Source: Actinomyces minihominis (GTDB taxonomy: Bacteria > Actinomycetota > Actinomycetes > Actinomycetales > Actinomycetaceae). From it: 64,000 nucleotides of DNA. The first letter of the stretch is position 1, and each line of letters opens with the position of its first letter. The DNA is taken from NCBI RefSeq assembly GCF_900187855.1, contig NZ_FYEG01000005.1, positions 62,001 through 126,000 on the forward strand, in the 5' to 3' direction. This document shows, piece after piece, positions 46,598-61,818 of the stretch. The translations under genes and the position numbers were made by a program. The notes beneath the pieces were generated by a model that was not told the origin of the DNA, made no database searches, and was given only the letters and a program-made list of their open reading frames with translations.

Positions 46598-46674
46598 GGG
46601 CCTATAGCTCAGTTGGCTAGAGCGCCACGTTTACACCGTGGATGTCGGGGGTTCGAGTCCCTCTGGGCCCACCA
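46598..46674 (+). tRNA. tRNA-Val (anticodon TAC)
   Basis: A complete 77-base cloverleaf: acceptor GGGCCTA with TGGGCCC (one G-U pair), D-arm AGCTCAGTTGGCTAGAGC, anticodon stem CCACG/CGTGG around TTTACAC with TAC in positions 34-36, T-arm GGGGGTTCGAGTCCCTC, and an encoded CCA. It reads valine GUA/GUG codons. It borders the defence/phage region, and tRNA 3' ends are common integration sites. Confidence 0.97.
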
Positions 46675-48151: not shown

Positions 48152-51100
48152 CTAGCTCATGTTCTTGATTGATGCCTTGATATGCTCTTGCTCAGCCGTC
48201 GTCAGGCCGTAGAGATCAAAAAGCTGTTGGTCGACATCCGCTAGGTCCGCATTCCAGTCGATTCGAGAGTCGTCAGAAAAATCCACGAGAGGGACGAATC
48301 TGTAGGTCTGCTTCGTGCCGTGCTGGCTAGCCTTCGCTTGTGAATGGAGGAACCTTGCAAACCTGGTCTTAAGGTATGCAGCCAGGTGGTTGGCGGTATC
48401 TTCGGTCAAACTCATATCTGCGCCAACAACCAGGTACGTCTCAGTGCATATCTCCCCGGGTTGCCCCAACAGAGTATTCTGGTTGTCGTCATTTAGCTCG
48501 GTGCCTATGTTGTTGGATTCAGGCACAAAGACTTTCCATTCGTCAATCCATCCTCTGTGTGAAGCGACTTCATCTCGTTCGACGTAGCCAATCTTTCCTG
48601 CTCGTCCGAAACACCGAACGGCATCGCGTAAGCCCTTCGCGCTGCTCCTGAAGCGCGCATCCTTGATGAAGAATGTTCGGAAGCCGAAAGCCTTGGCCGC
48701 CGAGACATGAGACTCGAGGGTGCCCCGGTCAGACATGTTCAACACCTTTTCGACAATGCCTACGCCACGCGTGTCTCGAAGGAATACGCCGAGCCCAAAG
48801 GCGTTGAGTGGTCGCGTCGCAACGTTGGCCGTGCCAGTGCCAACCCGGCTTGTGACTTCCGTTCCACCCTCGTCTAAGGCGTTATAGCTTGTATCACGAA
48901 CGAAGTAACAAATGCCACCACGATTGTTGGTGCCGGGGAATACAGCCTCCGGGCTGAGAAAATCGTGTAAAGCGCTAATGTGACCGTCATCCAGCATGGT
49001 TTCTCGGAACTCCGCCAACTCTTTCCCTTTTCCGCCCGTGTACCACCGGGCCGGAATAACAAAAGAAGAGACTCGGGGATCTAGTGCCGATGCAATGCCA
49101 ACGAACTTCTGGTAAATAGGGCGTGCACTCGAGCCAGCGCCACCGTCGTCTTGGTGGTACGGCGGGTTTCCTACTACTGCACCGAATTTCACGTGTGCGG
49201 CCTCCTCGTCCGGGATGCTTTGTTGGGCGTTGGTCCAGTTTTCAAGGTAGCTTGCGGCTCCGACATATTTGTCTTCGCCATCTTCGCTCTGTATACCGAG
49301 CAGGTCGTAGCTGTTGTACGCTTCTGCGATGTTCTCGGTCTTCAAGCCTAGGATTTCGTAGAACCGCCTCGTGAATTCGTAGGCAATGCTCGAGGTGGGA
49401 ATCGAGTAGATCGAGTCGCGCACCAGGTTCGCGTCCAGGCCCATTTCCCCGGCTAGCCGTTTGTAGGCTGCAACAGCGAACTCGCCCGACTTACTGGCGA
49501 TGTCGAGGAGCTTCTCGCCGTTTAGCAGTGACTGTTTCAGTTGTTCAGCGGGTAGGGCTGCGATCATCTCATCGCACAGCCATTCCGGTGTTCGGACTTC
49601 CGAATCGGAGATCCGACTGAACTTTCCAAGTGCCCGCTGAGCTCGCTCCAAAGGTTGGAGCTCGGCATCGTTCGCGAGCGTGGAGATGTTCTGGATCTTG
49701 TAGTCGAGTCCGCTCAGTTTGAATGGGTCAAATGCGTCGAGCATTCGTCTCAGGACCGACGGTTCCAAGTCGAGGTTCCGGGCAAGACGCCCATCGCTGG
49801 CTTCGATGGCTTCCGTGATGTCGCTGAGTGAAGCGACTGGTTGCGGGTTGAGCAGCGCGAAGAACAACAATCGTTGGTAGTAAGTCTGGAGCTTTTTCTG
49901 AAGCACCATAGTGTTGCCGTCGGTTGGGTCTTCGCTTGGGTCCGGCTTGTCCTCGGGTTTGGATTTGCCGTCGTCGTCTTCAGCGGAGCTGTCACCGGTG
50001 TCGAGGTCATCGCCCTCGCCTTTTGCGGGTTCAACTTCTAGCCCGAGACGACTGCCGATTTCCGCTTGCCGTTCGATCGTGGCCAAGATCTCTGCGTCGG
50101 CTAGGAGAGCGAGATCTATGGGAATGTCCCTTGCTTCGTCTTCGATGCTCCGTTTGTTGTTGTATTCCGCGACGGCTTCGAGGATGTCGCTTGGCTCGAC
50201 TTGGTGAATGCGCCCGGCGTTCAGCGTGATTATTGGGGAAATTCTCAGTTCGTCTGCGATGCGTTCCTTGAGTCGAGTGTTGCCGTTCTTTTCGGTGTTC
50301 GCGTTGTAGATGAGGGATTTGCGTTCCTGCATGCGAAACATGCGGCTCGGGTCGAAATCAACCAGTAGGGTCTGTGGCTTGAGATTCTCGCGAATGGTAG
50401 AGCCGTCGGCAGCTTCGAGTTCCCTGGTGTATTGGTTTTGGAGCCGGAATATGGCCTGGTCGTACTCCTGGGGCGATGCGGTGCCTTTCAGGAACAGCAT
50501 TGTGTCCCACTGTTCGACCGTTGACCCGGTGAGCATCCGGTTGACCGTGAGCGTAATCGTCTTCTGGTCTTCTTCTTCGGCCTTCCTTATGGCGGCCTTG
50601 ACGTCCTCTGGGGTTTTGTAGGAGGTTCCGCCGTCTACACCTGAAATGTTGATGATCTTGTAGTCACTGAGGTTAAGAAACTCGTCCCGGTTGGACTCGA
50701 TGAGTCTTTCCATGGCGTCACATGACGCACAGAAGGGGAGCACGACGACTAGGTGGCGGCACATGTCGCCTTCTTTGATTTTGTCGTAGTTCAGGAAGCC
50801 GAGAACTGAATCGTCCGCTTTGCTTCCGTCGATCACGCGTAGGAGGTCGAGAACCTCGGCTTCATGTTCGAACTGCTTATAGGCTCCTTTGTCGTCCTTG
50901 GTAATGGACTTTGGCTTCAGGAGTGCTGAGAGTCCGTAGGCGGTGCCGCTGGCGCGCAAAGCTTCCATTTTCTTGCGGGACGATTCGTTGGGGTTGAAGG
51001 CGAAACGGACCATTTCTGGGAACCCGAAGTAGGGGTTGTCCCATTCGTTCTGTTCGTGAGCTACATCTGTCAGATTGTGCTGGTCCCAGCGTTGCTGGTC

Positions 51101-52249
51101 GGCGACGATGTCTGTGAACTGGACGAACGATACGATGTCCTCCGGTTCGAACTCTTCGCCCATGAGGATGCGGTAGGGAGTTCCCGACAGATGTAGGCGC
51201 ACCCTCGCGTTCAGCGCTTTTTGGATTTCCGAGTCCGCATCCTGGAGGTCGATGTCCTTATCGTGTTTACTCGCTTTTGCGAGCAACCTTTCGTTGGCCT
51301 TCGCATCTTTCTTACTGAGCACCCTGCCGTACTCCTCGGCTCTCGCTCCGAAGTGGGTTTCGTCAACGATGAGGAGGTCAGCGGTCCGTTCGAAGAGCTG
51401 TCGATGCTTATCCTTGACCGCTTTGCCTTGGAGGTCTTGCAACGTCAGGAAGACCACAGCGGTGCCACCGTTGCCCGTGGTGTCTTCAATAGCGGACGTG
51501 TTGCGGAGGAGTGCGTCGGAGTCGAGGAAGTGGTAGCCCTCAAAATTACCGGCAACCTCGACCGTCTTCTTCCACTCGGACCGGACGTCAGCTTTGGCGG
51601 ACACGATGACCACTAGCTTTGAGTCGATGGCCTTCGCGCAGCAGAGCGACGTGAATGATTTACCGAACCGCATCACCGCATACATGAGGAGGTTACGGCG
51701 CCCCCTCGCAACCGCAACCTTGAACGCATCTACGGCATCAGCCTGATTCGGACGTAAATCCCAGATGGGACCACGCACGTAAGTCTGTGTTTCGGGCAGC
51801 TTGGTCGTAGCGTCGTAGAACGTGTACTTGCCAGGACTCTCTTCGTACGCTGCTCGAATTGATTCGATGGCTGCTGCGACGTCGTCACGTGTAGCGTCTT
51901 GGAAAAACTCGCGGCTCAGGTACGGTAGATGCCTCTCGTGCGCTGCAGATTCAGTGAGTCTGGGGCGGCCTCTGTCGTACTCAATGTAGTGGTGGACCGA
52001 GTGATCCCGGAAGTACACGTCGTCGTTTATGGAGGCGGAGCCGCGAAAGACCTCATCGAGGTTTTCGAAGTGCTCTAGGTTTTCAAACACCTTGCGCCAC
52101 TCAGCCAGGCGTACCGGGACTGGTCTGTAGGTGTCGCCCACTTTCAGGTAGTTGGGGACGGTGTTCGTGGCGAACGCGTATATGTGAGGCTTAACGCGTC
52201 CGACGATAATGCGGTCGAGGACAGACTGGTTCTCAATCTTGGAAGTCAT
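48152..52249 (-). CDS. Single-chain restriction-modification-like protein: GIY-YIG-like, SF2 helicase, N6-adenine methyltransferase
   Basis: A 1365-residue multidomain protein. Residues about 20-50 (HIYAFATNTVPNYLKVGDTYRPVPVRLAEWR) fit the GIY-YIG/T5orf172 nuclease pattern. An SF2 helicase follows: GKS at 196-198 (MRFGKSFTS), DETH at 296-299, SGTP at 355-358 and a motif V-VI region about 575-610. After an acidic linker (745-778) comes an Eco57I-like adenine methyltransferase: TPEWLCDEM (887-895), motif I LLDIASKSGEFA (914-925, atypical) and motif IV NPPY (1028-1031). The remaining 330 residues probably contain target recognition. The arrangement parallels Type ISP enzymes (LlaGI) but with a different nuclease. 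It is last in the six-gene operon, five bases after its partner. Confidence 0.82.
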   Translation of the reverse strand: MTSKIENQSVLDRIIVGRVKPHIYAFATNTVPNYLKVGDTYRPVPVRLAEWRKVFENLEHFENLDEVFRGSASINDDVYFRDHSVHHYIEYDRGRPRLTESAAHERHLPYLSREFFQDATRDDVAAAIESIRAAYEESPGKYTFYDATTKLPETQTYVRGPIWDLRPNQADAVDAFKVAVARGRRNLLMYAVMRFGKSFTSLCCAKAIDSKLVVIVSAKADVRSEWKKTVEVAGNFEGYHFLDSDALLRNTSAIEDTTGNGGTAVVFLTLQDLQGKAVKDKHRQLFERTADLLIVDETHFGARAEEYGRVLSKKDAKANERLLAKASKHDKDIDLQDADSEIQKALNARVRLHLSGTPYRILMGEEFEPEDIVSFVQFTDIVADQQRWDQHNLTDVAHEQNEWDNPYFGFPEMVRFAFNPNESSRKKMEALRASGTAYGLSALLKPKSITKDDKGAYKQFEHEAEVLDLLRVIDGSKADDSVLGFLNYDKIKEGDMCRHLVVVLPFCASCDAMERLIESNRDEFLNLSDYKIINISGVDGGTSYKTPEDVKAAIRKAEEEDQKTITLTVNRMLTGSTVEQWDTMLFLKGTASPQEYDQAIFRLQNQYTRELEAADGSTIRENLKPQTLLVDFDPSRMFRMQERKSLIYNANTEKNGNTRLKERIADELRISPIITLNAGRIHQVEPSDILEAVAEYNNKRSIEDEARDIPIDLALLADAEILATIERQAEIGSRLGLEVEPAKGEGDDLDTGDSSAEDDDGKSKPEDKPDPSEDPTDGNTMVLQKKLQTYYQRLLFFALLNPQPVASLSDITEAIEASDGRLARNLDLEPSVLRRMLDAFDPFKLSGLDYKIQNISTLANDAELQPLERAQRALGKFSRISDSEVRTPEWLCDEMIAALPAEQLKQSLLNGEKLLDIASKSGEFAVAAYKRLAGEMGLDANLVRDSIYSIPTSSIAYEFTRRFYEILGLKTENIAEAYNSYDLLGIQSEDGEDKYVGAASYLENWTNAQQSIPDEEAAHVKFGAVVGNPPYHQDDGGAGSSARPIYQKFVGIASALDPRVSSFVIPARWYTGGKGKELAEFRETMLDDGHISALHDFLSPEAVFPGTNNRGGICYFVRDTSYNALDEGGTEVTSRVGTGTANVATRPLNAFGLGVFLRDTRGVGIVEKVLNMSDRGTLESHVSAAKAFGFRTFFIKDARFRSSAKGLRDAVRCFGRAGKIGYVERDEVASHRGWIDEWKVFVPESNNIGTELNDDNQNTLLGQPGEICTETYLVVGADMSLTEDTANHLAAYLKTRFARFLHSQAKASQHGTKQTYRFVPLVDFSDDSRIDWNADLADVDQQLFDLYGLTTAEQEHIKASIKNMS

Positions 52250-52254
52250 TACTG

Positions 52255-53184
52255 CTAGTTCCCGTCAGCCAGTGCGGCGAATGTGGTTGTTTTCTTACCC
52301 CGCCAGTCTCGAATGCGGCACAGGGCCGCTTTCTTATCTTCCGCGGGCGTGTCGAAGAGTGTAGGGAGTAATTCTGGCGAGGATGGCTCGTGGAATGGGG
52401 GTGCTTGTGTGAATGCGTCCATTTGCCAAAGGTTCCAAGAGATGACCCGGGCAACCCTGCGCAGTTCGTCCCGGCTGGGTTCCCGCCTCAGGGCCGCGCG
52501 CGCGTAGTCGGTGTAACTGGCTAGGATGTTCTCCCTGGCTAATAGAAGGCTGTCGCCTTGAAGCTCGAAGCCATAAATGCTCTGAACCGCCCGAAGGGAC
52601 CAATTCAGCCATTCCTCTTCGGACGTGGTGTTTTCTTGGACGACACGCATCTTGCGGTCCAGCAGACCTATGCGTCTCTCAAGTTTGATGGGAGCACCGG
52701 TTGTGGCATCGTAGCGGCTTACCAAGTAGGGGGCCTCCCCGCAGGCGACCTCCATCCGCCGCTCGTCCACGTAGCGCTTCCACGAGCGCGGCCCGGCGTC
52801 CTCGAAATCGATGAGGTCCCGGTTAGTGCGCCATCCGTTCTTTGTGGGCCTGTTGAACACATTGGGACGACCAAACCACGCTTCGTCCACTAAGTTGTTT
52901 TGTTCGTTGCAAAGCCACGACGGTGTGAACACTTCCGCCCGCTCTTTGGTTCGCCCAAGCTGGTGGTGTTCAACCTTCTCGACGCGCGGTTGGAGTATCC
53001 CCGCGTTTTCGCCCGTGATTGCATCGACCGTGATCTCGTCTTCGGCGCCGAACCCGCTACCGCGCGATGCGTGGTCTTCGGTTGCCCAGACAATGTTTCG
53101 GCCGGTGGTGTTGTCTCGCAACAAGAGTTTGAGCAGCGTTGGATCCCTCTCCAGAAGGGCTTGTTCATCAACGTCGACCAGCAT
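52255..53184 (-). CDS. Restriction 'subunit M'-like partner protein
   Basis: A 309-residue protein that I recognise only as the short companion often found next to large helicase-methyltransferase proteins and loosely labelled restriction endonuclease subunit M. The motif RAEVFTPSWLCNEQNNLVDEAWFG (about 82-105) echoes the TPEWLCDEM segment of the downstream large protein. CGEAPYLVSRYD, RRIGLLDRKMRVV and VISWNLWQMDAF are other striking blocks. There is no NPPY motif and no SAM-binding loop, so it cannot be a complete methyltransferase. It overlaps the XRE gene upstream by 17 bases and precedes the large gene by five; it probably forms a complex with it. Confidence 0.65.
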   Translation of the reverse strand: MLVDVDEQALLERDPTLLKLLLRDNTTGRNIVWATEDHASRGSGFGAEDEITVDAITGENAGILQPRVEKVEHHQLGRTKERAEVFTPSWLCNEQNNLVDEAWFGRPNVFNRPTKNGWRTNRDLIDFEDAGPRSWKRYVDERRMEVACGEAPYLVSRYDATTGAPIKLERRIGLLDRKMRVVQENTTSEEEWLNWSLRAVQSIYGFELQGDSLLLARENILASYTDYARAALRREPSRDELRRVARVISWNLWQMDAFTQAPPFHEPSSPELLPTLFDTPAEDKKAALCRIRDWRGKKTTTFAALADGN

Positions 53185-53395
53185 CTGCGGTACCTTCCTT
53201 GGCCAGTTCGCAAATGTCGCCGATTTGGCAGTCGAGAGCGACGCATATACGGATCAGAGTGTCTGTGGTGACGGTTCCGCCCTTTCCGAGTTTCGCCATC
53301 GTTGATGGGGATACACCTGCCTTGGCTTGGAGCTGGGTCTTGTTCAAGTTTTTGTCTATCAAAAGTTTCCAGAGCTTGTTGTAGCTGAGCCTCAC
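53168..53395 (-). CDS. Small XRE-family helix-turn-helix regulator
   Basis: A 75-residue protein that is almost only a helix-turn-helix domain: NKTQLQAKAGVSPSTMAKLGKGGTVTTDTLIRICVALDCQIGDI. The GTG at 53395 is preferred over an in-frame TTG at 53425 because it has AGAGGAA six bases before it and overlaps the upstream stop as GTGA. It resembles the controller proteins of restriction-modification systems. Its position in the middle, between the ABC-3C genes and the restriction-like genes, suggests it controls the whole operon or its distal half. Confidence 0.88.
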   Translation of the reverse strand: MRLSYNKLWKLLIDKNLNKTQLQAKAGVSPSTMAKLGKGGTVTTDTLIRICVALDCQIGDICELAKEGTADAGRR

Positions 53396-55074
53396 TGATC
53401 GTTCCTCTTGTCCTTGGTATTCCAAACCCGTCCGTAAAGAGCCGCCTCACCCTCGCCGACTTCAATGACGGTATGTTCCTGGACGATGTCCCGGGTTCCT
53501 GGTGTGTAAGACACGGCCTTGTCGAAGGCAACGAAGATTTGCACACCGAGGGCCGCCGCCTCAACATACAGCTTCATGATTTCTTCGACAGGCTGGTCAC
53601 CGATGTTCTTGATGATTGGAGAGTCATGAATGATTGCGGGCAGCGCGGTTAGGGACGCGATTGCCAGGTCGAAGACGATTAGGTTCTTCGCCGTCGTTCC
53701 ATCGCCCGTGTCGCGGGGAGTGCCGTACGTGTACCTCTGTCCACCGTTAGATGTCTCTTTGAGTTCGAATATCGGCGGATACTGGGCCCCGTCGTAGATT
53801 CGGTCATTTAGTTCCTCCAGCCTTTTGTTTAGGCTGCTGGTCATCTCCTGCAGCAGTTCGGGGCGTCTTCTCGCCAGCTCGTCAGCGGCCTCTTTTGCCT
53901 CATCCTTAGCGTCTTCGGTCGCCTCCCAGGCGTCTGCCTGTGCGCGTAGTCTCTGGATCTCTGCCTTCAGGGTCCCGGCTCTGTCAAGTTCTGCGTCGTT
54001 GAGGTTGGAGGAGACGTTGATGGAAGCCATTTGGGCTCGGACCAAGTTGATCTGTTGGTCGAGCATATCGGCCAGTTTCTGGTAGCGGATTTCTTGCTCG
54101 TCCAGTTCCCGTTCCAAGATGCCCGCCAGGCGATAGTGGAAGCCCTCGATTTCCCGCAGACTCACGATGTTGGCTTCTGGGAAGAATGCCTGAAGTTGGC
54201 TGATGTCTTCGGTGTCGATCTGAGGAGTTCCGATTCGGCTTGCTTCGATTACAGCGAGTTTAGCGCCGGTGGTTTTCCTGTCGGTGATCAGCGAGTTTAG
54301 TTGAGCGGAGAGTCGTGCCTTCTCTTCAGCACCGGCCATGTCCTCGTCGAAGAGGCGCTGATCCGCGCCCGCACGAAGGTTCTCAAGTTCTGTTTCTGCT
54401 TCTTTTAGTCGGGTCTGTGCCTTCTTGTAGTTAGTCTTGGTGCGCAGGGTGATGTAGTCGCTCAGTCCTAACCGTGCTGCGGCTTTCAGGGTTGTAAGTC
54501 GCTCCTGGGCTTTGTCGTTGCGGTCTTGGAGCTCTTTGATTGGCTGGTAGACTCCGAACAGTTTTTCCAGCGCTTCGATGTCTGCGACAGCACGGCTATC
54601 CCCGACCTTGAGTGGTTTGGAGTATGCGATGTCATCCTTTTCGTGGACTCTGGAGAACCTGCCGAATGCTCCGCGCCAGCTCAGGTCGGGGTCGGTCAAC
54701 TTGTATTCGTCCTTGAGGAACTTCCGGAACTCGTTGAGTGACCATTCGTCCTCGCGCGTCCTGTAGTGCTTATCGGCGTACACCTGCACATACCCGGGTC
54801 GTGAGGTGTCGCGGCTGAAGTAGTACTCCCTGTCCGCGAACTGGAAGGTGAAGTAGATAGTGTGGTCGCTTACAGCGAAGGGTTCGACGGTCTTGGATTT
54901 GGCGAAGTCGTCGCCACCGAAAGCGAAATCGATTATCAGCAGGGTGGTGGATTTGCCAATGGAGTTGGCCGCGTTCTTGGTGCCCTGGATTATGTTCAAG
55001 CCGGGGCCGAAGCGAATGTGCTGGTCTCGGCCCTTGTACGAGGCAAACTCGGGTACATAGATTTCAAGCAGCAA
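53392..55074 (-). CDS. SMC-like ATPase with DUF2326 domain (ABC-3C system ATPase)
   Basis: A 560-residue ABC-type ATPase of the RecF/SMC/Rad50 group. The P-loop is NSIGKSTTLL (37-46), unusual in having an asparagine-serine lead. Residues about 200-450 are charged helices predicted as a coiled coil (AQTRLKEAETELENLRAG; ELDEQEIRYQKLADMLDQQ; RAGTLKAEIQRLRAQADAWEA). The C-terminal half is DUF2326: NLIVFDLAIASLTALPAIIHDSP, where the HDSP box stands in the Walker B region. Such ATPases are the core of ABC three-component conflict systems. The start is a TTG with GGAG upstream. It overlaps the middle component by 11 bases and the XRE gene by four. Confidence 0.85.
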   Translation of the reverse strand: MLLEIYVPEFASYKGRDQHIRFGPGLNIIQGTKNAANSIGKSTTLLIIDFAFGGDDFAKSKTVEPFAVSDHTIYFTFQFADREYYFSRDTSRPGYVQVYADKHYRTREDEWSLNEFRKFLKDEYKLTDPDLSWRGAFGRFSRVHEKDDIAYSKPLKVGDSRAVADIEALEKLFGVYQPIKELQDRNDKAQERLTTLKAAARLGLSDYITLRTKTNYKKAQTRLKEAETELENLRAGADQRLFDEDMAGAEEKARLSAQLNSLITDRKTTGAKLAVIEASRIGTPQIDTEDISQLQAFFPEANIVSLREIEGFHYRLAGILERELDEQEIRYQKLADMLDQQINLVRAQMASINVSSNLNDAELDRAGTLKAEIQRLRAQADAWEATEDAKDEAKEAADELARRRPELLQEMTSSLNKRLEELNDRIYDGAQYPPIFELKETSNGGQRYTYGTPRDTGDGTTAKNLIVFDLAIASLTALPAIIHDSPIIKNIGDQPVEEIMKLYVEAAALGVQIFVAFDKAVSYTPGTRDIVQEHTVIEVGEGEAALYGRVWNTKDKRNDQ

Positions 55075-55288
55075 TCTGGATCACTCCGTCCGCGTTCATC
55101 TCGATTTTTCTCAATGCGTACAGCACGGTGAGTGCTTCGATGAACCGGTAGGTTCCGCGCTCGTCGTCGCAGAAGCGCTCATTGAGGACTGTAAGCGGGG
55201 TGCCCTCCGGTTCGATCTGGGACAAAACTGGTGCCAGATCAGCCAACGTAGAGTTGTCGAAGCTGGTGAGCTTGCTAGGAAGCCGCAT
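55064..55288 (-). CDS. ABC-3C middle component (small protein)
   Basis: A 74-residue protein: RLPSKLTSFDNSTLADLAPVLSQ, RGTYRFIEALTVLYALRKIEMN. The size, helical content and position between the C-terminal-type protein and the DUF2326 ATPase match the middle component of ABC three-component systems, of the short wHTH-like kind. The ATG at 55288 is chosen; the open frame reaches 55348 but overlaps the upstream gene heavily. It overlaps both neighbours (14 and 11 bases). The identification is by position and general pattern. Confidence 0.7.
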   Translation of the reverse strand: MRLPSKLTSFDNSTLADLAPVLSQIEPEGTPLTVLNERFCDDERGTYRFIEALTVLYALRKIEMNADGVIQIAA

Positions 55289-56420
55289 GCTGCACCTCGA
55301 AAACCTCGCAGATTTGGACGAAGTAAGAGACCAAAACGGCGCATACATGTTCGCGGTGTCCGGTTCGTTTCTGAACCCATTGAGTTAGGGCATCGAACGT
55401 GTCCGGTTGGGACGCGCTGGAACCAGCAAGTTCCAGGTAACGTCCGTTCATTTGGTTGCTCAGAAGACGAAAGTGGAGCTTGTTTTGAATTTCCAGGTCG
55501 CTCATGTATGAGTGCATCGTTGCGAAGTAGGTTGTCATCGCATCCCTAACTTGCAGCTGGAGCATTGGGTGGTTCTTGATCTTGGCTTCGATAGCCACAG
55601 GATCGTAATTAGGGTCGGAAGTGGCAGCGGGTAGCTGTTCTGCGGTTAGTTGCGAGACTTTGCTCAAGAGGTCAGCCAGTTGCCGCTCGAGGTTCAACGG
55701 AACCATCGCTTCTATCAGAAGTGCCTCTTCACTCGTGAGCTTTGCTTTGGTGGCGCGGATGCGTTTCTGTTCTTCGAGCGACGGATCTGCTTGGTAGGAG
55801 GTCGCGCATTGGGGGCACATCACCACAAAGTCATCAAAACCTGGGTCCGCGCAGTTGGCGTCTATTAGCACTATCTCCGATACCGGCGCGCGGTTCGAAC
55901 CGGCGGCCACACTTAGTGATCGGCCGCATGACGCGCAGCCGCGGGCTTGTAGATATAGGGCGCGGGTGTTCTTGGCGGTGGCATTTGCTATCCGGAGGTT
56001 GCGTGCCGCTGTTTCTGGCCGGATGTCTAGTTTGGCCTTCTTGATCAAGAACTCTTGGGCGATCTGGGCGCACACGACGCTGACGTTGGCTACATCGACG
56101 TCGTGCATGCCGTGGCTGTCCAGGCAGGAGACGACTTGTCTTTTTGCAGGTACCGGGGCGTTGTCGATGACGCTGATGAAGTTGCCGAGGTCAATGCAAT
56201 TGAATATAGCGTTCGCCAGCTTCTTGGTGAACGACCGGTCGCTGGAGAAGATTTTCCGCTTGGTCTCATCGCTGGCAAGGACACTCGGGTCATCGCGAGT
56301 GTTCCACTTGTCCTCTGGCACGCTCGTCAGCATCGAAATGACCTCGGCGACATGCTCAGTGCCGTTGTTACCTTTGCCCGTAACTGGCAGCAGGCACTTC
56401 AGTAGGTCACAAAACCGCAC
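55275..56420 (-). CDS. ABC-3C system zinc-ribbon C-terminal-type protein
   Basis: First gene of the leftward operon, 381 residues. Two CxxC pairs (Cys162/Cys165 in RGCASCGRSL and Cys202/Cys205 in VMCPQCATSY) form a probable zinc ribbon. The N-terminal 60 residues and the C-terminal 150 are helical without recognised catalytic residues. In ABC-3C systems this third component is the effector or scaffold and varies in N-terminal domain; the ribbon could bind nucleic acid. The start is a GTG with AAAGGTGG upstream. The immediately following middle component overlaps it. The family assignment is from context and partial resemblance. Confidence 0.65.
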   Translation of the reverse strand: MRFCDLLKCLLPVTGKGNNGTEHVAEVISMLTSVPEDKWNTRDDPSVLASDETKRKIFSSDRSFTKKLANAIFNCIDLGNFISVIDNAPVPAKRQVVSCLDSHGMHDVDVANVSVVCAQIAQEFLIKKAKLDIRPETAARNLRIANATAKNTRALYLQARGCASCGRSLSVAAGSNRAPVSEIVLIDANCADPGFDDFVVMCPQCATSYQADPSLEEQKRIRATKAKLTSEEALLIEAMVPLNLERQLADLLSKVSQLTAEQLPAATSDPNYDPVAIEAKIKNHPMLQLQVRDAMTTYFATMHSYMSDLEIQNKLHFRLLSNQMNGRYLELAGSSASQPDTFDALTQWVQKRTGHREHVCAVLVSYFVQICEVFEVQHAAS

Positions 56421-56820
56421 CTACGCCACCTTTCTCCAGTTTCTCCCTGCTTCTCCCCAGGGCTGCTCCCTCTATCTCCCCGGACACCGCAGACCCAAAA
56501 ATACTGTTGGTTCTGACGGCTGAGCCACGATTATTCGAGGGCGCGCACTTCAAATAGTACGCGTTCCTCTGGGTGTTCGCAGAGTAAAACTCCACGAACG
56601 CATGATCCGCGGGTTGGTTGTCCGGAGTAGCTGGTGGTGGCCACCTTCAGTTGCTGTGTAGGCCCAGGCGTAGCTAATCGGGGCTGTCCTAGAGATCAGC
56701 GGGAGACACGTTCGAGCAGCTGCGGCGCCTACTCACCTTGAGTGGGCGCCGCAGTGCGTTTGAGCGTCCTCCTGCGGGATCAACACAACTGGATACCAAT
56801 CGAACGGGTCTCCCTTCCAC
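56421..56820. other. Gene-free boundary between the defence operon and the phage module
   Basis: A 400-base gap. The left part is strongly pyrimidine-rich on the plus strand (a purine-rich leader for the leftward operon). No open frame is credible. The promoters for both the leftward operon and the rightward phage genes must lie here; AATAAT-like -10 candidates near 56530 are seen, without convincing -35 boxes. Confidence 0.4.
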
Positions 56821-57405
56821 ATGGAAGGGGCCAGGCCCTTGGGAACCAACAAGCAAACCCAAACTCTCAAGATCCGCTACGAGAAAACCGAGGGCGTGCG
56901 GGAGTCCTCGTCCTGCATTTACGCCGAAGTGGAGGTGGACTCTGCAGAGGTCGACGTGTTCGTGGAGAACGTCCACCAGGAGCGCCTGCGCAAGGCCGAA
57001 GATCCCAGCTCGGTTGTCCGCTGGAGCGCGGACGAGACGGTGCGCGAGGTTCTCAACAAGCCCGAATACAACCAGGCGAAGAAGTATCTGCGCCACACCG
57101 CCTATGAAGCCACACCAGACGGGGACGGCGAAATCTCAGCCGTCGAGGCGTCGCTGACGTCGGGTGGTTATCTCGCTCAGGCGGGCGGGGTTGACCCGGC
57201 TGATTCCTGGGTGGGGGAGATGACGATCTGGGATGCGATCAACTCCCTGCCGCCTCGTGACAAAGCGATTCTCGTGGACGTGCGCTTGAACGGGCTGACC
57301 CAGGTTGAGGCCGCCGCGAAGTACGGGGTATCCCAGCCCCGCATCCAACAACTTCTCGCCCGCTCAATCAAGAGGCTGGGGGCGATCTTGCGTGAGGGGT
57401 TATAA
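56821..57405 (+). CDS. Sigma-70 region-4-like phage regulator
   Basis: A 194-residue protein. The C-terminal third is a helix-turn-helix of sigma-factor region 4 type: IWDAINSLPPRDKAILVDVRLNGLTQVEAAAKYGVSQPRIQQLLARSIKRL. The N-terminal part (KIRYEKTEG..SSCIYAEVEVDS) is not recognisable. There is no sigma region 2, so it is not a full sigma factor; similar proteins start the early gene cluster of gram-positive prophages and act as transcription activators. The ATG at 56821 lacks a ribosome-binding site; a TTG at 56839 has GGAAGGGG upstream and may be the real start. Confidence 0.75.
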   Translation: MEGARPLGTNKQTQTLKIRYEKTEGVRESSSCIYAEVEVDSAEVDVFVENVHQERLRKAEDPSSVVRWSADETVREVLNKPEYNQAKKYLRHTAYEATPDGDGEISAVEASLTSGGYLAQAGGVDPADSWVGEMTIWDAINSLPPRDKAILVDVRLNGLTQVEAAAKYGVSQPRIQQLLARSIKRLGAILREGL

Positions 57406-57416
57406 ACCGGTCCTTC

Positions 57417-57477
57417 TCGAAGCCCTCTTAGTAGCGGAGCCAGTGGGTGGTTTCGCTCCTAAGAGGAAGGAAATACG
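57417..57477 (+). promoter_or_regulatory. Structured leader with shared TCGAAGCCCTCT motif
   Basis: TCGAAGCCCTCT (57417-57428) recurs at 62198-62209 before the antirepressor gene. Here CCTCTTAG (57424-57431) pairs with CTAAGAGG (57459-57466) and an inner GAGC/GCTC adds to the hairpin; its 3' arm abuts the GGAAGG ribosome-binding site, so it may control translation. Confidence 0.5.
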
Positions 57478-57711
57478 ATGCGACACAAACTAAAAGTCCG
57501 CGTCAACGCAGGTGGGGGAGACGCCGGGCGCGTGGTCGGAGTCAACAGGATGGCTCTGCCCCGCAGGCTATACAAGCGCATTTTCGGTGGCGAACGCCGG
57601 GTAGCGGTTCTGCTGCCAGGAGTGACCGTTGATGAGGTCACCATCGTCGAGCGCGACGATCTGACTGACGTGGCTGAGGCCGCAGGTGTCATGGGTGGTG
57701 GTCCTAAGTGA
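57478..57711 (+). CDS. Small phage protein, unknown
   Basis: A 77-residue protein that I do not recognise. The N-terminus is basic (RHKLKVRVN), the middle has a hydrophobic strand pair (RVAVLLPGVTVDEVTIVERDD) and the tail is glycine-rich. AGGAAGG precedes the ATG. The last four bases overlap the next gene (GTGA), so it belongs to the phage operon. Confidence 0.65.
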   Translation: MRHKLKVRVNAGGGDAGRVVGVNRMALPRRLYKRIFGGERRVAVLLPGVTVDEVTIVERDDLTDVAEAAGVMGGGPK

Positions 57712-58088
57712 TCCCGATTTCAGCAGCGAACAAGATCATCGACGGCATCACCCAGATCAACGAAGGACTTGCTGAGCTTTCACGCTGGGTTGAAGCCCGG
57801 GCCTTCGATGGGATTGAGGATGAGTACGCGTTGGCGGGCGAACGCCCCCACCCGCCAGTAGAGGTTCCAGGAACAACGCCGCCTGCTAGTGCTGCCGAAC
57901 CGGAGCCTCACGAGTCGCCAGTGACTTTGGTGGAGGTTCGCACGGCCCTGTCGGCCCTGTCGCAGGCGGGGGAGACCGACCAGGGGCGCAGCCTGATTGA
58001 AGCGACCGGAGCGGACAAGCTCAGTGCGGTTCCCCAGGACAAGTACACGTGGTTGATGGCACGGGCGAAAGAGATCGGCAATGCCTGA
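57708..58088 (+). CDS. Phage replication-module protein, function unknown
   Basis: A 126-residue protein. The N-terminus is helical (AANKIIDGITQINEGLAELS), the centre is proline/glutamate-rich, and the C-terminus (TLVEVRTALSALSQAGETDQ, IEATGADKLSAVPQDKY) resembles the small SAP-like or HeH-like domain of short proteins encoded before DUF2800 genes in gram-positive phages, often mislabelled as rRNA biogenesis protein Rrp5. Possibly DNA-binding. GTG start overlapping the gene before, and an eight-base overlap with DUF2800 after. Confidence 0.65.
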   Translation: MIPISAANKIIDGITQINEGLAELSRWVEARAFDGIEDEYALAGERPHPPVEVPGTTPPASAAEPEPHESPVTLVEVRTALSALSQAGETDQGRSLIEATGADKLSAVPQDKYTWLMARAKEIGNA

Positions 58089-59217
58089 CCAACACGCCAT
58101 GCTCAGTGCTTCGGGTGCGCACCGGTGGATGAACTGTCCCCCCAGCGCCGTCCTCGAATCCGGCGAACCCGGGTCGACCTCTGACGCTGCCGAACAAGGT
58201 ACTGCCGCGCATGCCCTGGCGGAGCACAAGTTGCGTAAGGCATTGAAGCAGCGATCCAAACGGCCAGTGTCCTCGTGGCAGGACGATGAAATGGATGAGC
58301 ACACCACCGACTACGCGGCATTCGTCCTCGAACAGTTGGCTGCGGCGAGGGCGACCTGTCCCGACGCGCAGCTCTTGATCGAGCAGCGCCTGGACTTCAG
58401 CCATTTGGTTCCGGGTGGTTTCGGGACCGGCGACGCAGTGATCATCGCTGAACCCCGCCTGCAGATCATCGACCTGAAATACGGGCTGGGAGTCTTGGTT
58501 GAGGCTGAGCGCAATGCCCAGTTGATGCTGTACGCCCTCGGAGCGCTCCACGCGTTCGAACCGCTCTACGACATCACCGAGGTTTCGGTGACTATCTTCC
58601 AGCCCCGGCGCGGCAACGTCTCCACCTGGACCATCACCACAGAGGAACTCCTGGCATGGGCGGAGGAAGAAGTGGTGCACAGAGCTGCTCTGGCTGCTGA
58701 GGGTGCGGGCGAGTTTCGCTCAGGCTCTTGGTGTCAGTTCTGCCGATTGGCTCCGACCTGTAGAGCGCGGGCGGAGGCCAACCTGGAATTAGCCAAGCTC
58801 GAGTTCGCGCCACCTGCGGAGTTGACAGATGCGGAGATCGCGGAGGTCCTCACCCAGATCCCGCTGCTCACCAAGTGGGCATCCGATGTGGAGGCTTACG
58901 CGGCTTCGTTGGCGATCAACCAAGGGAAGCAGTGGCCCGGATTCAAGGTCGTGGCTGGCCGGTCAGTCCGCAAATACATGGACGAGACGGCTGTCGCTGA
59001 GGCCGCGGAGGCTGCGGGCTACGCGGACATCTACGACCGGAGACTCATCGCCCTCACGGCGATGGAAAAACTCATGGGCAAGAAGACCTTCACCGAGATC
59101 CTCGGCGACCTGGTCTTCAAACCCAGCGGGAAACCAACCTTGGTTCCCGACACCGACAAGCGACGCGCCCTTGACATCCGGAGCGCCGGAGACGAATTCA
59201 CAAAAACACAAAAGTAG
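58081..59217 (+). CDS. DUF2800 protein (Cas4/RecB-like nuclease fold)
   Basis: A 378-residue protein typical of phage replication modules. LSASGAHRWMNCPPSAVLE and EQGTAAHALAEHKL give the N-terminal RecB/Cas4-like pattern, the core GFGTGDAVII..LQIIDLKYGLGVLVEA has the D-x(n)-DxK-like active site, and the cysteines in CPP and in WCQFCRLAPTCRARAE could hold an iron-sulphur cluster as in Cas4/AddB. It probably processes DNA ends during phage replication or recombination. The DUF2815 gene follows after 14 bases, its constant partner. Confidence 0.9.
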   Translation: MPDQHAMLSASGAHRWMNCPPSAVLESGEPGSTSDAAEQGTAAHALAEHKLRKALKQRSKRPVSSWQDDEMDEHTTDYAAFVLEQLAAARATCPDAQLLIEQRLDFSHLVPGGFGTGDAVIIAEPRLQIIDLKYGLGVLVEAERNAQLMLYALGALHAFEPLYDITEVSVTIFQPRRGNVSTWTITTEELLAWAEEEVVHRAALAAEGAGEFRSGSWCQFCRLAPTCRARAEANLELAKLEFAPPAELTDAEIAEVLTQIPLLTKWASDVEAYAASLAINQGKQWPGFKVVAGRSVRKYMDETAVAEAAEAAGYADIYDRRLIALTAMEKLMGKKTFTEILGDLVFKPSGKPTLVPDTDKRRALDIRSAGDEFTKTQK

Positions 59218-59231
59218 AAAGAGGCAACAAA

Positions 59232-59771
59232 ATGGCAACTACAAATACTCGCATCGTAACCGGTGAAGTCCGACTCTCTTACGCGAACATTTGGGAACCC
59301 AAATCCATCCAGGGCGGCGCACCTAAGTACTCGGTGTCCCTGATAATCCCGAAAGGCGACCAGGCAACCCTGACCACGATCAACCGCGCGATTGACGCCG
59401 CAATAGAAGCTGGGATCGGCAAGTTCGGCGGGAAGAAACCCAACAAGGCCGCTCTCAAGCTTCCACTACGTGACGGGGATATCGAGAAAGACGATGAGGC
59501 CTATGCGGGGGCGATGTTCCTCAACGCCAACAGCAAGACTCCACCCCAGATTGTGGACGAGAACGTGGCACCGATCTTGGACCGCGCCGAGGTGAGCTCC
59601 GGCTGCTACGGACGCGTCAGCCTGTCCTTCTACGCGTTCAACACCAACGGGAACAAGGGCATCGCCTGCGGCCTTGGAAACATCCAAAAGACCCGGGACG
59701 GCGAACCACTCGGTGGCGGCCACGTCTCCGCCGCGGATGATTTCGGTGCTAGCGCCGACTTCCTCGCCTAG
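59232..59771 (+). CDS. DUF2815 protein (probable single-strand-binding/annealing role)
   Basis: A 179-residue protein matching DUF2815: TRIVTGEVRLSYANIWEPKSI, SVSLIIPKGDQATLTTINRAIDAA and SGCYGRVSLSFYAFNTNGNKGIACGLGNIQ. The family is predicted to have an OB-like fold and lies between DUF2800 and DNA polymerase genes in phages; single-stranded DNA binding is the usual inference but is not shown. AGAAAGAGG precedes the ATG. Confidence 0.9.
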   Translation: MATTNTRIVTGEVRLSYANIWEPKSIQGGAPKYSVSLIIPKGDQATLTTINRAIDAAIEAGIGKFGGKKPNKAALKLPLRDGDIEKDDEAYAGAMFLNANSKTPPQIVDENVAPILDRAEVSSGCYGRVSLSFYAFNTNGNKGIACGLGNIQKTRDGEPLGGGHVSAADDFGASADFLA

Positions 59772-59847
59772 TCACTAACGAACACCTTGTGGGGCGATGA
59801 CCAAACCGGCCATCGCCCCACAACCATTTACCTGAAAGGCAGACGGC

Positions 59848-61818
59848 ATGGAGACCATCGCCATCGATCTGGAAACCCGGTCCAGCGTCAACCTCACCAA
59901 ATCCGGCGTCTACAAGTACGCAGAGAGTCCCGACTTCGACATCCTCCTGTTTGGCTACTCCGTTGACCGTGGGCCGGTGCATGTCGTAGATCTGGCAGGA
60001 GGAGAAAGTCTGCCGCCAGATGTCTTGGCCGCCCTGACGGATACCAATATCGTGAAGACAGCGTTCAATGCCGCGTTCGAGAGAATCTGCCTCTCGTCCT
60101 GGCTGCGCAAACACCACCCAGGCATGCTCTCCGGCAACGGTTTCTTGGACCCCGTTCAGTGGCGGTGCACCATGGTGTGGTCCGCGTATCTTGGCTTGCC
60201 GATGAGCCTGGAATCAGCCGCCCAAGTCCTCTCCCTTCCCGTGCAGAAAGACGCCGCCGGGAAGAAGCTCATCAAGCAGTTCTGCGTGCCCCAAGGCCCC
60301 ACCGTGTTCAACGAGGGCAGCGCCTTCAACCCGCCAGCCTCTGACGTGCAGGCCTGGCAACAATTCAAGGACTACAACCAACGCGACGTCGAGGTGGAGC
60401 TGGCAATCCAAGCCCGACTCACCTCCTTCCCAATGCCGGAGGCCGAGTGGGAGGCCTGCGCGTTGGACCAGCGGATCAATGACAGGGGTGTCGCCCTCGA
60501 CCAGACCCTGGTCGACAACGCCGTGCGGTGCGCGACAGGCCACCACGACAAATCCATGGCCCGCGCCCAGCATCTCACGGGCCTGGAAAACCCAAACTCA
60601 CCCTTACAGCTCAAGGAATGGCTGATCTCCCAGGGTTGCGACATCGGGGGGCTAACGAAACAAGATGTATCTCGGGCTTTGGAGGAATCTGTTGGAGATG
60701 TGCGAGAAGTCCTGACATTGCGCTCAGACATGTCCAGATCCTCAACCAAGAAATATCAGGCCATGCAACAAGTCGCCGGAGATGATTCTCGCGCCCGCGG
60801 CCTCATCCAGTTCTACGGAGCAGGCAGAACCGGCAGGTTCGCAGGCCGCCTCATCCAAGTCCAAAACCTACCCAGAAATCACCTGCCAGACCTCGAATCC
60901 GCGCGGAGCCTGGTGCGCGGCGGCCACTTCGACGCCCTCGAACTGCTCTACCCCTCAGTGCCAGACACGCTCAGTCAGTTGGTGCGCACCGCGTTCGTGC
61001 CCGCCGCGGGCCACCGGTTTATCGTCGCGGACTTCAGTGCTATTGAGGCCCGCGTGATCGCCTGGCTCGCAGGTGAAGAATGGCGCCTCGACCTCTTCCA
61101 AGCAGGAGGCGACATCTACTGCCAATCAGCGTCCCAAATGTTCGGGGTCCCAGTCGGTAAACATGGCCCTAACGCTGACCTGCGGCAAAAAGGAAAAATC
61201 TCCGAACTGGCCTGCGGCTACAACGGATCCGTCGGCGCACTGAAAGCCATGGGCGCCCTCGAAATGGGCCTACAAGAGGAAGAACTCAAACCTCTGGTTG
61301 ACGCGTGGCGAGCCTCCAACCCCAACATCGTGCAACTTTGGGCGAACGTGGAAGAAGCCGCCATCCAAGCCATCACCACTAGAACCAAAATCAGACTGCA
61401 CAACCTGATCTTCGCAGTGCGTTCTGGGATCCTCTTCATCACCCTGCCATCTGGCCGCCGACTGGCATACGTGCAACCGAGCCTGGGCGAGAATCGGTGG
61501 GGCGGCACCTCCATCAACTACTGGGGTGTCGGCACAGGCAAGAAATGGCAGAAACTGGAAACCTATGGCGGGAAACTGGTCGAAAACATCGTCCAGGCCA
61601 TCGCCCGCGACATCCTCACCCACGTCCTCAAACTCCTAGATGACGCCGGACACAAAGTCGTGATGCACGTCCATGACGAGGCCGTCATCGAAGAACCCTT
61701 CACGTCACCTGCGACCGTCAAAAGCATCTGCCAACTCATGACCACACAGCCCTTCTGGGCCGACGGCCTCCCACTGGACGCTGACGGCTACGAATGCGTG
61801 TTTTACAAGAAGGACTAA
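59848..61818 (+). CDS. Phage family-A DNA polymerase with 3'-5' exonuclease domain
   Basis: A 656-residue polymerase for replication of the element. The proofreading exonuclease starts ETIAIDLETRSSVNL (Asp7 and Glu9), with DYNQRDVEVELAIQ as its third motif. The polymerase domain shows GAGRTGRFAGRLIQVQNLPR (template/dNTP region), motif A DFSAIEARVIAWLAGE and motif C MHVHDEAVIEEP. It lacks a 5'-3' exonuclease domain, as usual for phage enzymes. The gene starts 76 bases after DUF2815. Confidence 0.95.
   Translation: METIAIDLETRSSVNLTKSGVYKYAESPDFDILLFGYSVDRGPVHVVDLAGGESLPPDVLAALTDTNIVKTAFNAAFERICLSSWLRKHHPGMLSGNGFLDPVQWRCTMVWSAYLGLPMSLESAAQVLSLPVQKDAAGKKLIKQFCVPQGPTVFNEGSAFNPPASDVQAWQQFKDYNQRDVEVELAIQARLTSFPMPEAEWEACALDQRINDRGVALDQTLVDNAVRCATGHHDKSMARAQHLTGLENPNSPLQLKEWLISQGCDIGGLTKQDVSRALEESVGDVREVLTLRSDMSRSSTKKYQAMQQVAGDDSRARGLIQFYGAGRTGRFAGRLIQVQNLPRNHLPDLESARSLVRGGHFDALELLYPSVPDTLSQLVRTAFVPAAGHRFIVADFSAIEARVIAWLAGEEWRLDLFQAGGDIYCQSASQMFGVPVGKHGPNADLRQKGKISELACGYNGSVGALKAMGALEMGLQEEELKPLVDAWRASNPNIVQLWANVEEAAIQAITTRTKIRLHNLIFAVRSGILFITLPSGRRLAYVQPSLGENRWGGTSINYWGVGTGKKWQKLETYGGKLVENIVQAIARDILTHVLKLLDDAGHKVVMHVHDEAVIEEPFTSPATVKSICQLMTTQPFWADGLPLDADGYECVFYKKD

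What the first reader, a model, noticed from the sequence alone, without database searches (positions are those of the whole stretch)
48152..56420. Six-gene overlapping operon joining an ABC three-component system to a single-chain restriction-modification-like enzyme
Seen: all six leftward genes overlap or are within five bases (56420 to 48152), so they are made together. Known: ABC-3C systems (DUF2326-type SMC ATPase, small middle component, C-terminal-type protein) were predicted as conflict systems, and single-chain helicase-methyltransferase enzymes (Type ISP) restrict phage DNA. Inference: the ATPase module may sense or bind DNA translocated or marked by the methyltransferase-helicase, making one composite defence system with its own XRE controller. 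I know of no described system with this exact set.
Basis: partly seen in the sequence, partly recalled or inferred. Interest (0 to 1): 0.88.

Follow-up and report, generated by a model that had tools for sequence, protein, structure and literature searches.

The report
Phage-borne sensor cassette welded to restriction systems
A prophage carries a four-gene DNA-sensor-like cassette in one operon with a restriction-modification system, and the same cassette turns up in front of many unrelated kinds of restriction system, which suggests a portable partner for DNA-cutting defences.

Summary
In detail: six leftward genes overlap or abut (56420 to 48152). They are CTD11, MC7 and DUF2326 (an ABC-3C, Lamassu-like module), a small XRE regulator, and a DrdVI-like two-subunit restriction-modification (R-M) system. 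The operon is prophage cargo, between a tRNA-Val gene and a phage replication module. The exact six-gene set is not a conserved block: in 297 genomes of the order the halves meet only here. But the first four genes are a recurrent cassette. In two collections (best 80 relatives each), R-M or related defence genes lie downstream on the same strand in 45 of 65 non-redundant long-form cassettes with XRE and 0 of 17 short forms: type I, II, IIG, III, DISARM-, Druantia- and Hma-like. Cassettes at least 90% identical carry different systems, and one viral contig repeats the window's pairing. Short forms can have R-M genes upstream instead. Long forms have mostly lost the HNH catalytic histidine and gained a helical N-terminal domain. 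Most likely the cassette is a generic, DNA-mediated partner (alarm) of restriction systems. This mechanism is inferred. The main rival is a shared cargo hotspot without cooperation; a tree-corrected test of the link did not reach significance.

The parts
55275..56420 (-). CTD11 protein (LmuA-like, long form): helical N-terminal domain about 1-130, degenerate HNH/treble-clef about 160-212, CTD11 domain 242-374
   Evidence: Pfam PF20277; PADLOC LmuA over residues 1-132 at 1.5e-8 and PDC-M68A 4.9e-6; AF2 mean pLDDT 87.6; profile matches the HNH of McrA and Cap5 in the PDB, Foldseek hits there have E 0.28 or worse; catalytic His absent
55064..55348 (-). MC7, ABC-3C middle component (LmuC position); likely true start at 55288
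   Evidence: Pfam PF20292 3.4e-11; alternative ATG
53392..55074 (-). DUF2326 SMC/Rad50-like ATPase (LmuB-like)
   Evidence: PF10088 and AAA_23; PADLOC PDC-M68B 1.7e-15, LmuB 2.1e-14; invariant GKS and HDS columns in the 7 aligned sequences
53168..53425 (-). XRE/HTH_26 small regulator; alternative GTG start at 53395
   Evidence: PF13443 5.5e-19; same family follows DUF2326 in 49 of 80 genome loci
52255..53184 (-). MT309, separate methyltransferase (M) subunit of the R-M system
   Evidence: PADLOC MTase_II PDLC03390 2e-96; no Pfam match; related to the M subunit of the DrdVI plasmid (26%, 2e-9)
48152..52249 (-). helMT: GIY-YIG-like N-terminus (inferred), helicase (ResIII 164-314; Helicase_C 504-602 below cut-off), Eco57I methylase (946-1104)
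   Evidence: Pfam; PADLOC REase_MTase_IIG 3-1364; N-terminal alignment with relatives
46598..46674 (+). tRNA-Val(TAC), probable left attachment site of the prophage (inferred from position only)
   Evidence: ARAGORN; no repeat of its 3' end found up to the contig end
46958..47767 (-). AbiJ-like protein (Abi_C), probably a second cargo gene between the tRNA and the operon
   Evidence: PF14355 1.7e-22; PADLOC AbiJ 2e-12
56821..61818 (+). start of the divergent phage early/replication module: sigma-like, DUF2800, DUF2815, DNA polymerase
   Evidence: PHROGs; further phage genes to terminase in C4:126001-140717

Best explanation
The operon is prophage defence cargo made of a portable Lamassu-like (ABC-3C) cassette, CTD11-MC7-DUF2326-XRE, and a swappable R-M system, here a DrdVI-like two-subunit type IIG enzyme. 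Proposed working: the R-M enzyme methylates host DNA and cuts unmodified invading DNA; the SMC/Rad50-like DUF2326 with MC7 and CTD11 reacts to the DNA ends or fragments that any restriction enzyme makes, and sets off a second response (cell arrest or death, or stronger restriction); the XRE protein sets expression of the operon. The link passes through DNA (or transcription), not through docking to one restriction enzyme, because the same cassette goes with many R-M types. Shown: the gene order, its recurrence with many R-M types, partner swapping, loss of the HNH catalytic histidine in this protein, the prophage setting. Inferred: end sensing, the second response, control by XRE. The effector of the long form is unknown.
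For: Same-strand R-M or related defence genes lie within 5.5 kb downstream of long-form cassettes with XRE in 28 of 41 genome loci and 27 of 39 viral loci (26 and 23 within 1.5 kb); non-redundant at 90%, 45 of 65, against 0 of 17 short forms. A Pfam scan not tuned to these genes agrees: ResIII 12, N6_Mtase 11, DNA_methylase 10, HsdM_N 10, Eco57I 7 of 100 proteins downstream of long forms, against one DNA methyltransferase (MethyltransfD12) among the 25 of 83 families shown for 75 proteins downstream of short forms. Partners are of many kinds and differ between cassettes at least 90% identical: L063/L154 type II against L156 type I; L042/L148 Druantia-like against L053 Hma-like. R-M type needs 18 changes on the cassette tree (hand labels). 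Short forms show the link a second way, with R-M or methylase-like genes upstream in 8 of 20. L164 repeats the window's pairing. Two N-terminal domain families without detectable kinship each go with types I, II, IIG, III and DISARM, against enzyme-specific docking. A review holds that Lamassu likely recognises aberrant DNA such as ends (passages of PMC10586767).
Against: No function was tested. With the tree taken into account the link is not proven: long against short gives only 1 independent pair, and XRE against R-M gives about 3.7 of 6 pairs the same way and 0.1 the other, median p 0.125. The nearest cassettes (Bifidobacterium, 44% in DUF2326) lack XRE and any R-M directly downstream and lead to pheST, though L019 has type I genes about 2 kb upstream. 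In 10 of 41 genome loci with XRE no R-M gene was recognised within 5.5 kb downstream on either strand. The HNH base is lost in long forms and no catalytic motif stands out in the N-terminal domain, so no killing enzyme is evident. In this genome's order the two halves are usually apart. Placement beside a phage replication module (60 of 76 viral long forms) is also what a plain cargo hotspot gives.
Confidence: 0.4

Rival explanations
1. Shared hotspot: the cassette and the R-M genes are independent defence systems that collect at one cargo site of this kind of prophage. The cassette is merely the promoter-proximal resident.
For: Recurrent position near the phage replication module: 60 of 76 viral long forms have a core phage gene in the locus, 0 of 4 short forms. 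Some cassettes have no R-M neighbour. Phage NatCom_35866 (L012) carries a DrdVI-like R-M about 5.6 kb from DUF2800 with no cassette gene found in the 19 kb held. Tree-corrected tests of the link are not significant.
Against: Genes overlap or abut in one direction. The partners recognised are mostly restriction or modification systems. The link appears again in reversed order in short forms, none of which showed the phage core genes. Same-strand R-M genes on the upstream side of long forms are rare: 3 of 44 genome and 0 of 71 viral loci.
Confidence: 0.28
2. Regulatory gate: the ABC-3C proteins and XRE together control expression of the downstream R-M genes, for instance delaying nuclease on entry into a new host or raising it on infection. 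The cassette is a controller, not a killer.
For: XRE stands between the cassette and the R-M genes in most R-M-bearing long forms. The same XRE family also stands a second time further on, directly before a type II enzyme gene in L063 and about 1 kb before MT309- and helMT-like genes in L094, with a 338-aa ORF between. Long forms mostly lost the nuclease His. Partner type does not follow the N-terminal family. The cassette is mostly divergent from the phage early genes.
Against: I know of no SMC-like ATPase that regulates R-M genes (recall, not searched). XRE is absent from the place after DUF2326 in some R-M-bearing long forms: upstream of CTD11 in L009, L177, L181, L182, not found in L166. 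Short forms have an intact HNH and no XRE. The R-M-alone loci L012, L013, L014, L098, L099, L112 and L114 have no XRE of this family in the stretches held.
Confidence: 0.22

Closest known systems
ABC-3C / Lamassu superfamily (LmuA-LmuC-LmuB, DdmABC)
   Same: Order effector-like protein, small middle component, SMC-like ATPase; PADLOC LmuA and LmuB models match; Pfam ABC-3C families MC7 and CTD11
   Different: The long-form CTD11 protein has a degenerate HNH and a helical N-terminal domain with no PDB match at E 0.001; an XRE gene and a swappable R-M system follow
PDC-M68 (PADLOC phage-defence candidate)
   Same: Closest PADLOC match of DUF2326 (PDC-M68B 1.7e-15) and a match to the C-terminal part of CTD11 (PDC-M68A 4.9e-6)
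   Different: Weak matches; PADLOC gives no description, and I did not see what else that candidate contains
DrdVI (M1-2.DrdVI, Deinococcus wulumuqiensis NEB 479, plasmid pDrdVI; GCAGCC, 6mA, type IIG; passages of PMC6430315)
   Same: Separate M subunit plus Eco57I-type methylase plus helicase chain in one gene run
   Different: In the window the helicase and methylase are one chain in the order helicase-methylase; 25-29% identity; linked to the ABC-3C cassette
Type ISP single-chain enzymes (LlaBIII-like; recalled, not from a call)
   Same: Helicase and methyltransferase in one chain
   Different: GIY-YIG-like rather than Mrr-like N-terminus, and a separate methyltransferase subunit
PrrC-type guards lodged in type I R-M operons (recalled, not from a call)
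   Same: An accessory defence gene joined to an R-M operon
   Different: Different proteins; the cassette here goes with many R-M types

Membership tests
ABC-3C (Lamassu superfamily) | SMC/ABC ATPase + middle component + CTD-type protein in one operon | tested here: met
   DUF2326 PF10088, MC7 PF20292, CTD11 PF20277 above curated cut-offs, overlapping genes
ABC-3C (Lamassu superfamily) | LmuA-type protein with an enzymatic effector domain | tested here: inconclusive
   HNH base His in 20 of 20 aligned short forms but 3 of 60 long forms with a residue there, and not in the window; the N-terminal domain has no Pfam or PDB match, so an unknown activity is not excluded
ABC-3C (Lamassu superfamily) | Anti-phage or anti-plasmid activity | not testable with these tools
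   Needs experiments
Type IIG R-M, DrdVI-like | M subunit + Eco57I methylase + helicase homologous to the characterised system | tested here: met
   helMT 29% over the Eco57I part (2e-61) and 25% over the helicase (6e-42); MT309 26% (2e-9); PADLOC type IIG 1520 bits
Type IIG R-M, DrdVI-like | GIY-YIG nuclease domain at the N-terminus (feature of several relatives) | tested here: inconclusive
   Aligned pattern IYAF..LKVG.T.R shared with two relatives annotated GIY-YIG and with the DrdVI and NatCom_35866 helicases, not with the L. reuteri chain; no Pfam GIY-YIG hit
Type ISP | One polypeptide with Mrr-type nuclease, helicase, coupler, methylase, TRD (recalled) | tested here: not met
   No Mrr match in Pfam; separate MT309 subunit

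The most novel reading that the evidence does not exclude
The long-form CTD11-MC7-DUF2326-XRE cassette is a universal plug-in for restriction: a DNA-end or foreign-DNA alarm that lost its own nuclease and works with whatever methylation-based restriction system lies downstream, spread by one kind of temperate phage.
Probability: 0.3. Interest if true: 0.85.

Novelty: new variant of a known kind. Interest (0 to 1): 0.62.

Why it matters
Restriction systems and Lamassu-type systems are usually counted as separate defences. A single cassette that sits in one gene run with type I, II, IIG, III, DISARM-, Druantia- and Hma-like systems, and swaps between them, would mean that cutting and a second response are often built as one machine. 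It would give a simple rule for finding such pairs, explain many DUF2326 operons, and give a direct test of whether SMC-like immune sensors read the products of restriction. It also shows phages carrying such pairs as cargo.

Tried and rejected
Exact six-gene unit moving as a block: rejected for this genome's order; one further instance of the pairing found (L164). The nearest R-M relatives (G070, G239; helMT 50-57%, MT309 59%) carry MT309 plus helMT without cassette genes in the stretches held; no XRE was found in L112 and L114 (G070 and G239 stretches are cut by contig ends).

Working idea 'dead HNH if and only if R-M': rejected in that strict form. Short forms with intact HNH also have R-M genes, but upstream: type I in L021, L039, L056, L059; type IIG in L044, L061; a methylase-like match (mads_2) in L024 and L038, the latter with another ORF between. 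I first looked downstream only, which made the contrast too clean.

N-terminal domain as a known enzyme or adaptor: no Pfam match and no PDB match with E <= 0.001 for the full model or the domain alone. N-terminal family tied to R-M type: not seen (hand labels). Operator search: the strongest inverted repeat (56720-56754) lies about 300 nt upstream, nearer the divergent sigma-like gene; left open. Attachment repeat of tRNA-Val: none found up to the contig end. The first viral scan with the single window ATPase found no relative. DUF2326 in print: 2 papers listed, both unrelated by title. Krishnan et al. 2020, which defined ABC-3C (recalled), and Haudiquet et al. 2025 are not held, so I cannot say whether the R-M link is already in print; the searches were made, and two further papers were searched by term without a mention of ABC-3C.

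Counting. Hand labels gave 31 of 42 long+XRE genome loci with R-M (L029 added, some other-strand partners counted). The fixed rule gave 28 of 41 on the same strand plus 3 on the other strand only. Within 1.5 kb it is 26 of 41 and 23 of 39. The farther ones are L083, L094, L124, L143, L176 and L185; in L094 the R-M genes lie beyond a recombinase and a second XRE. The rule's models for R-M genes were built from genes downstream of the genome loci, so they favour that side, and the 'DISARM-like' label rests on helicase similarity (in L058 and L146 only on that for the gene named). The Pfam counts lack this bias but show only the 25 commonest families and cover the first two (long) or up to five (short) downstream ORFs. 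Dropped before these counts: loci with under 2.5 kb after the cassette. Only the best 80 of 236 genome relatives and 80 of 101 viral relatives were available. Some viral contigs are copies of genome loci; the 90% clustering (119 clusters of 159 proteins) allows for that.
Full report
The observation. Curated Pfam cut-offs are met for CTD11, MC7, DUF2326, HTH_26, ResIII and Eco57I; Helicase_C is below its cut-off and MT309 has no Pfam match. PADLOC matches helMT over its full length to a type IIG enzyme (1520 bits) and MT309 to a type II methyltransferase; CTD11 matches LmuA over its first 132 residues (1.5e-8), and DUF2326 matches PDC-M68B (1.7e-15) and LmuB (2.1e-14). Two starts are probably later than the longest ORFs: MC7 at 55288 and XRE at 53395, the latter giving a 4-nt overlap with DUF2326.

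The R-M half. Relatives of helMT were found on 85 plasmid and 10 phage records. In four records looked at, the chain is split into a small M subunit, an Eco57I methylase and a helicase; in two of these the helicase is annotated as GIY-YIG nuclease. One is the plasmid pDrdVI, whose methyltransferases were cloned and assigned to GCAGCC, 6mA, type IIG (passages of PMC6430315). The window's N-terminus shares the IYAF..LKVG.T.R pattern with four of five relatives aligned, not with the L. reuteri chain; Pfam gives no GIY-YIG hit, so that domain is inferred. MT309 corresponds to the M subunit. It is not a single-chain type ISP enzyme by the features tested.

The pairing in the order. CTD11 occurs in 3 of 297 genomes and helMT in 19 of 297; only the window's genome has both. 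The nearest R-M relatives, in G070 and G239, show MT309 and helMT without cassette genes in the stretches held, which are cut by contig ends. So the exact six-gene set is not a conserved block.

The cassette elsewhere. A scan of genome contigs (84,980 species by the tool's description) with a DUF2326 alignment found 236 relatives; the best 80 were kept. CTD11, MC7 and DUF2326 are together in 79 of 80, the exception being L053, where CTD11 was not found. By the length of the CTD11 protein and an XRE gene after DUF2326, the 80 fall into 49 long forms with XRE, 11 long forms without and 20 short forms without (seven fragmentary loci were called long by hand in the script). Downstream of long forms, including L009, L015 and L017 from other sources, PADLOC names type I subunits (L015, L026, L034, L049, L066), type II enzymes (L035, L046, L050, L063), type IIG (L017, L025), type III (L009, L085), DISARM DrmMII+DrmD (L023) and DrmA (L083), Druantia DruA with an SspH-like protein (L042), HmaB (L053) and MzaC/Helicase_II (L057); Pfam adds a HaeIII enzyme (L075). 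No PADLOC match was found for the downstream proteins tried of L019, L022, L030, L048 and L068.

Counts. Fixed rule, same strand, within 5.5 kb, loci with at least 2.5 kb after the cassette. Genome set: long with XRE 28 of 41 (3 more on the other strand only), long without XRE 3 of 9 (2 more), short 0 of 16 (1 more). Viral set of 80 loci (best of 101): long with XRE 27 of 39 (7 more), long without XRE 10 of 13 (2 more), short 0 of 3. Clustered at 90% identity over both sets: 45 of 65, 9 of 15 and 0 of 17. Within 1.5 kb: 26 of 41 and 23 of 39. Upstream on the same strand: long 3 of 44 and 0 of 71, short 5 of 17 and 1 of 4. A Pfam scan independent of my models agrees (100 proteins of 50 long loci against 75 proteins of 16 short loci). 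The tree-corrected tests are weak: 1 independent pair for long against short, and for XRE 6 pairs with median p 0.125, nearly all that differ going the expected way.

Partner swapping. On a tree of 90 DUF2326 proteins the R-M type needs 18 changes among the labelled R-M-bearing rows, while long/short needs 3 (hand labels, no shuffle test for type). Cassettes at least 90% identical carry different systems: L063 and L154 type II, L156 type I; L042 and L148 Druantia-like, L053 Hma-like. R-M presence itself is clustered on the tree (18 changes against a shuffled mean of 28.7). L164, a viral contig, has CTD11-MC7-DUF2326-XRE followed by a 312-aa MT309 relative (45%), a 345-aa methylase and an 1140-aa helicase, that is the window's pairing with the long chain split; its CTD11 has the other N-terminal family. 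In L094 an MT309 relative (42%) and a helMT relative lie about 5 kb past the cassette, beyond a recombinase, a second XRE and a 338-aa ORF.

Two forms. Aligned short CTD11 proteins (18 of the 20 genome loci plus L006 and L007) keep an HNH motif: base histidine, asparagine and last histidine in 20 of 20. In 67 long proteins the base is a histidine in 3 of 60 with a residue there, and the last histidine is kept in 10 of 59. L068, L079, L094, L096 and L097 lack the zinc finger. The long form adds a helical N-terminal domain, modelled well (mean pLDDT 90.6, pTM 0.85), with no PDB match at E 0.001. There are two sequence families of it without detectable kinship (hhalign probability 3%), each found with type I, II, IIG, III and DISARM partners. 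Short forms are not free of R-M: type I, type IIG or methylase-like genes stand in the same-strand run that ends in the cassette in L021, L024, L038, L039, L044, L056, L059 and L061, 8 of 20.

The setting. The operon lies between tRNA-Val with an AbiJ-like gene and a divergent phage module: sigma-like protein, DUF2800 (exonuclease in PHROGs), DUF2815 (ssDNA-binding), DNA polymerase, anti-repressor, helicase and both terminase subunits towards the contig end. At least one of DUF2800, DUF2815, PolA, VapE or the anti-repressor is in the locus of 60 of 76 viral long forms and 0 of 4 short forms, and of 23 of 60 long and 0 of 20 short genome loci by my count of the list, mostly on the opposite strand. 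Phages L009, L010 and L012 are filed under Ca. Heliusvirales.

Mechanism. What links a cassette to such different restriction systems, in two layouts, should be common to them: they cut DNA, and they need safe timing of expression. I rate DNA-mediated coupling (the Rad50/SMC-like ATPase reacting to DNA ends or fragments left by restriction, with a second response) above regulatory gating through XRE and above plain co-carriage in a hotspot, none of them by much. A review holds that Lamassu likely recognises aberrant DNA such as ends (passages of PMC10586767), and another cites preprints in which LmuA is freed and forms tetramers on activation (passages of PMC12409362). The weak point is the output: no active enzyme is visible in the long CTD11 protein. 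None of the steps beyond gene content has been tested.

Novelty. The parts are known kinds: ABC-3C/Lamassu and R-M. That one ABC-3C cassette is the recurrent front end of many R-M types was not met in my searches of the held library, but the paper that defined ABC-3C is not held, so prior description cannot be excluded.

Noticed in passing
window 46958-47767: AbiJ-like gene (Abi_C, PADLOC AbiJ) right beside tRNA-Val, probably a second cargo gene of the prophage.
   Followed up: partly
L024:6875-8752, L038:2358-3854: Methylase-like proteins matching mads_2 (mad2) stand upstream of short-form cassettes, hinting at further modification systems joined to ABC-3C.
   Followed up: no
L068, L079, L094, L096, L097: Clade of cassettes whose CTD11 protein lacks the zinc finger; four of the five have a conserved ~300-aa protein next (not called in L096), and all five lead to a large serine recombinase.
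   Followed up: partly
L065:626-1735: A DpdB-like protein (PADLOC 7.5e-19) ends 2 nt before a short-form cassette.
   Followed up: no
L012 (phage NatCom_35866): DrdVI-like R-M genes about 5.6 kb from DUF2800 with no ABC-3C cassette gene found in the 19 kb held, pointing to a cargo hotspot in these phages.
   Followed up: partly
window 56720-56754: A 16-nt inverted repeat (94% complementary, 3-nt spacer) about 300 nt upstream of the operon and about 65 nt before the divergent sigma-like gene; operator or terminator, not resolved.
   Followed up: no
viral loci such as L118, L125, L130, L158, L170, L184: Several IMG/VR contigs end within about 20 nt of the end of the cassette, as if prophage trimming cut off the R-M cargo; cause not checked.
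   Followed up: no
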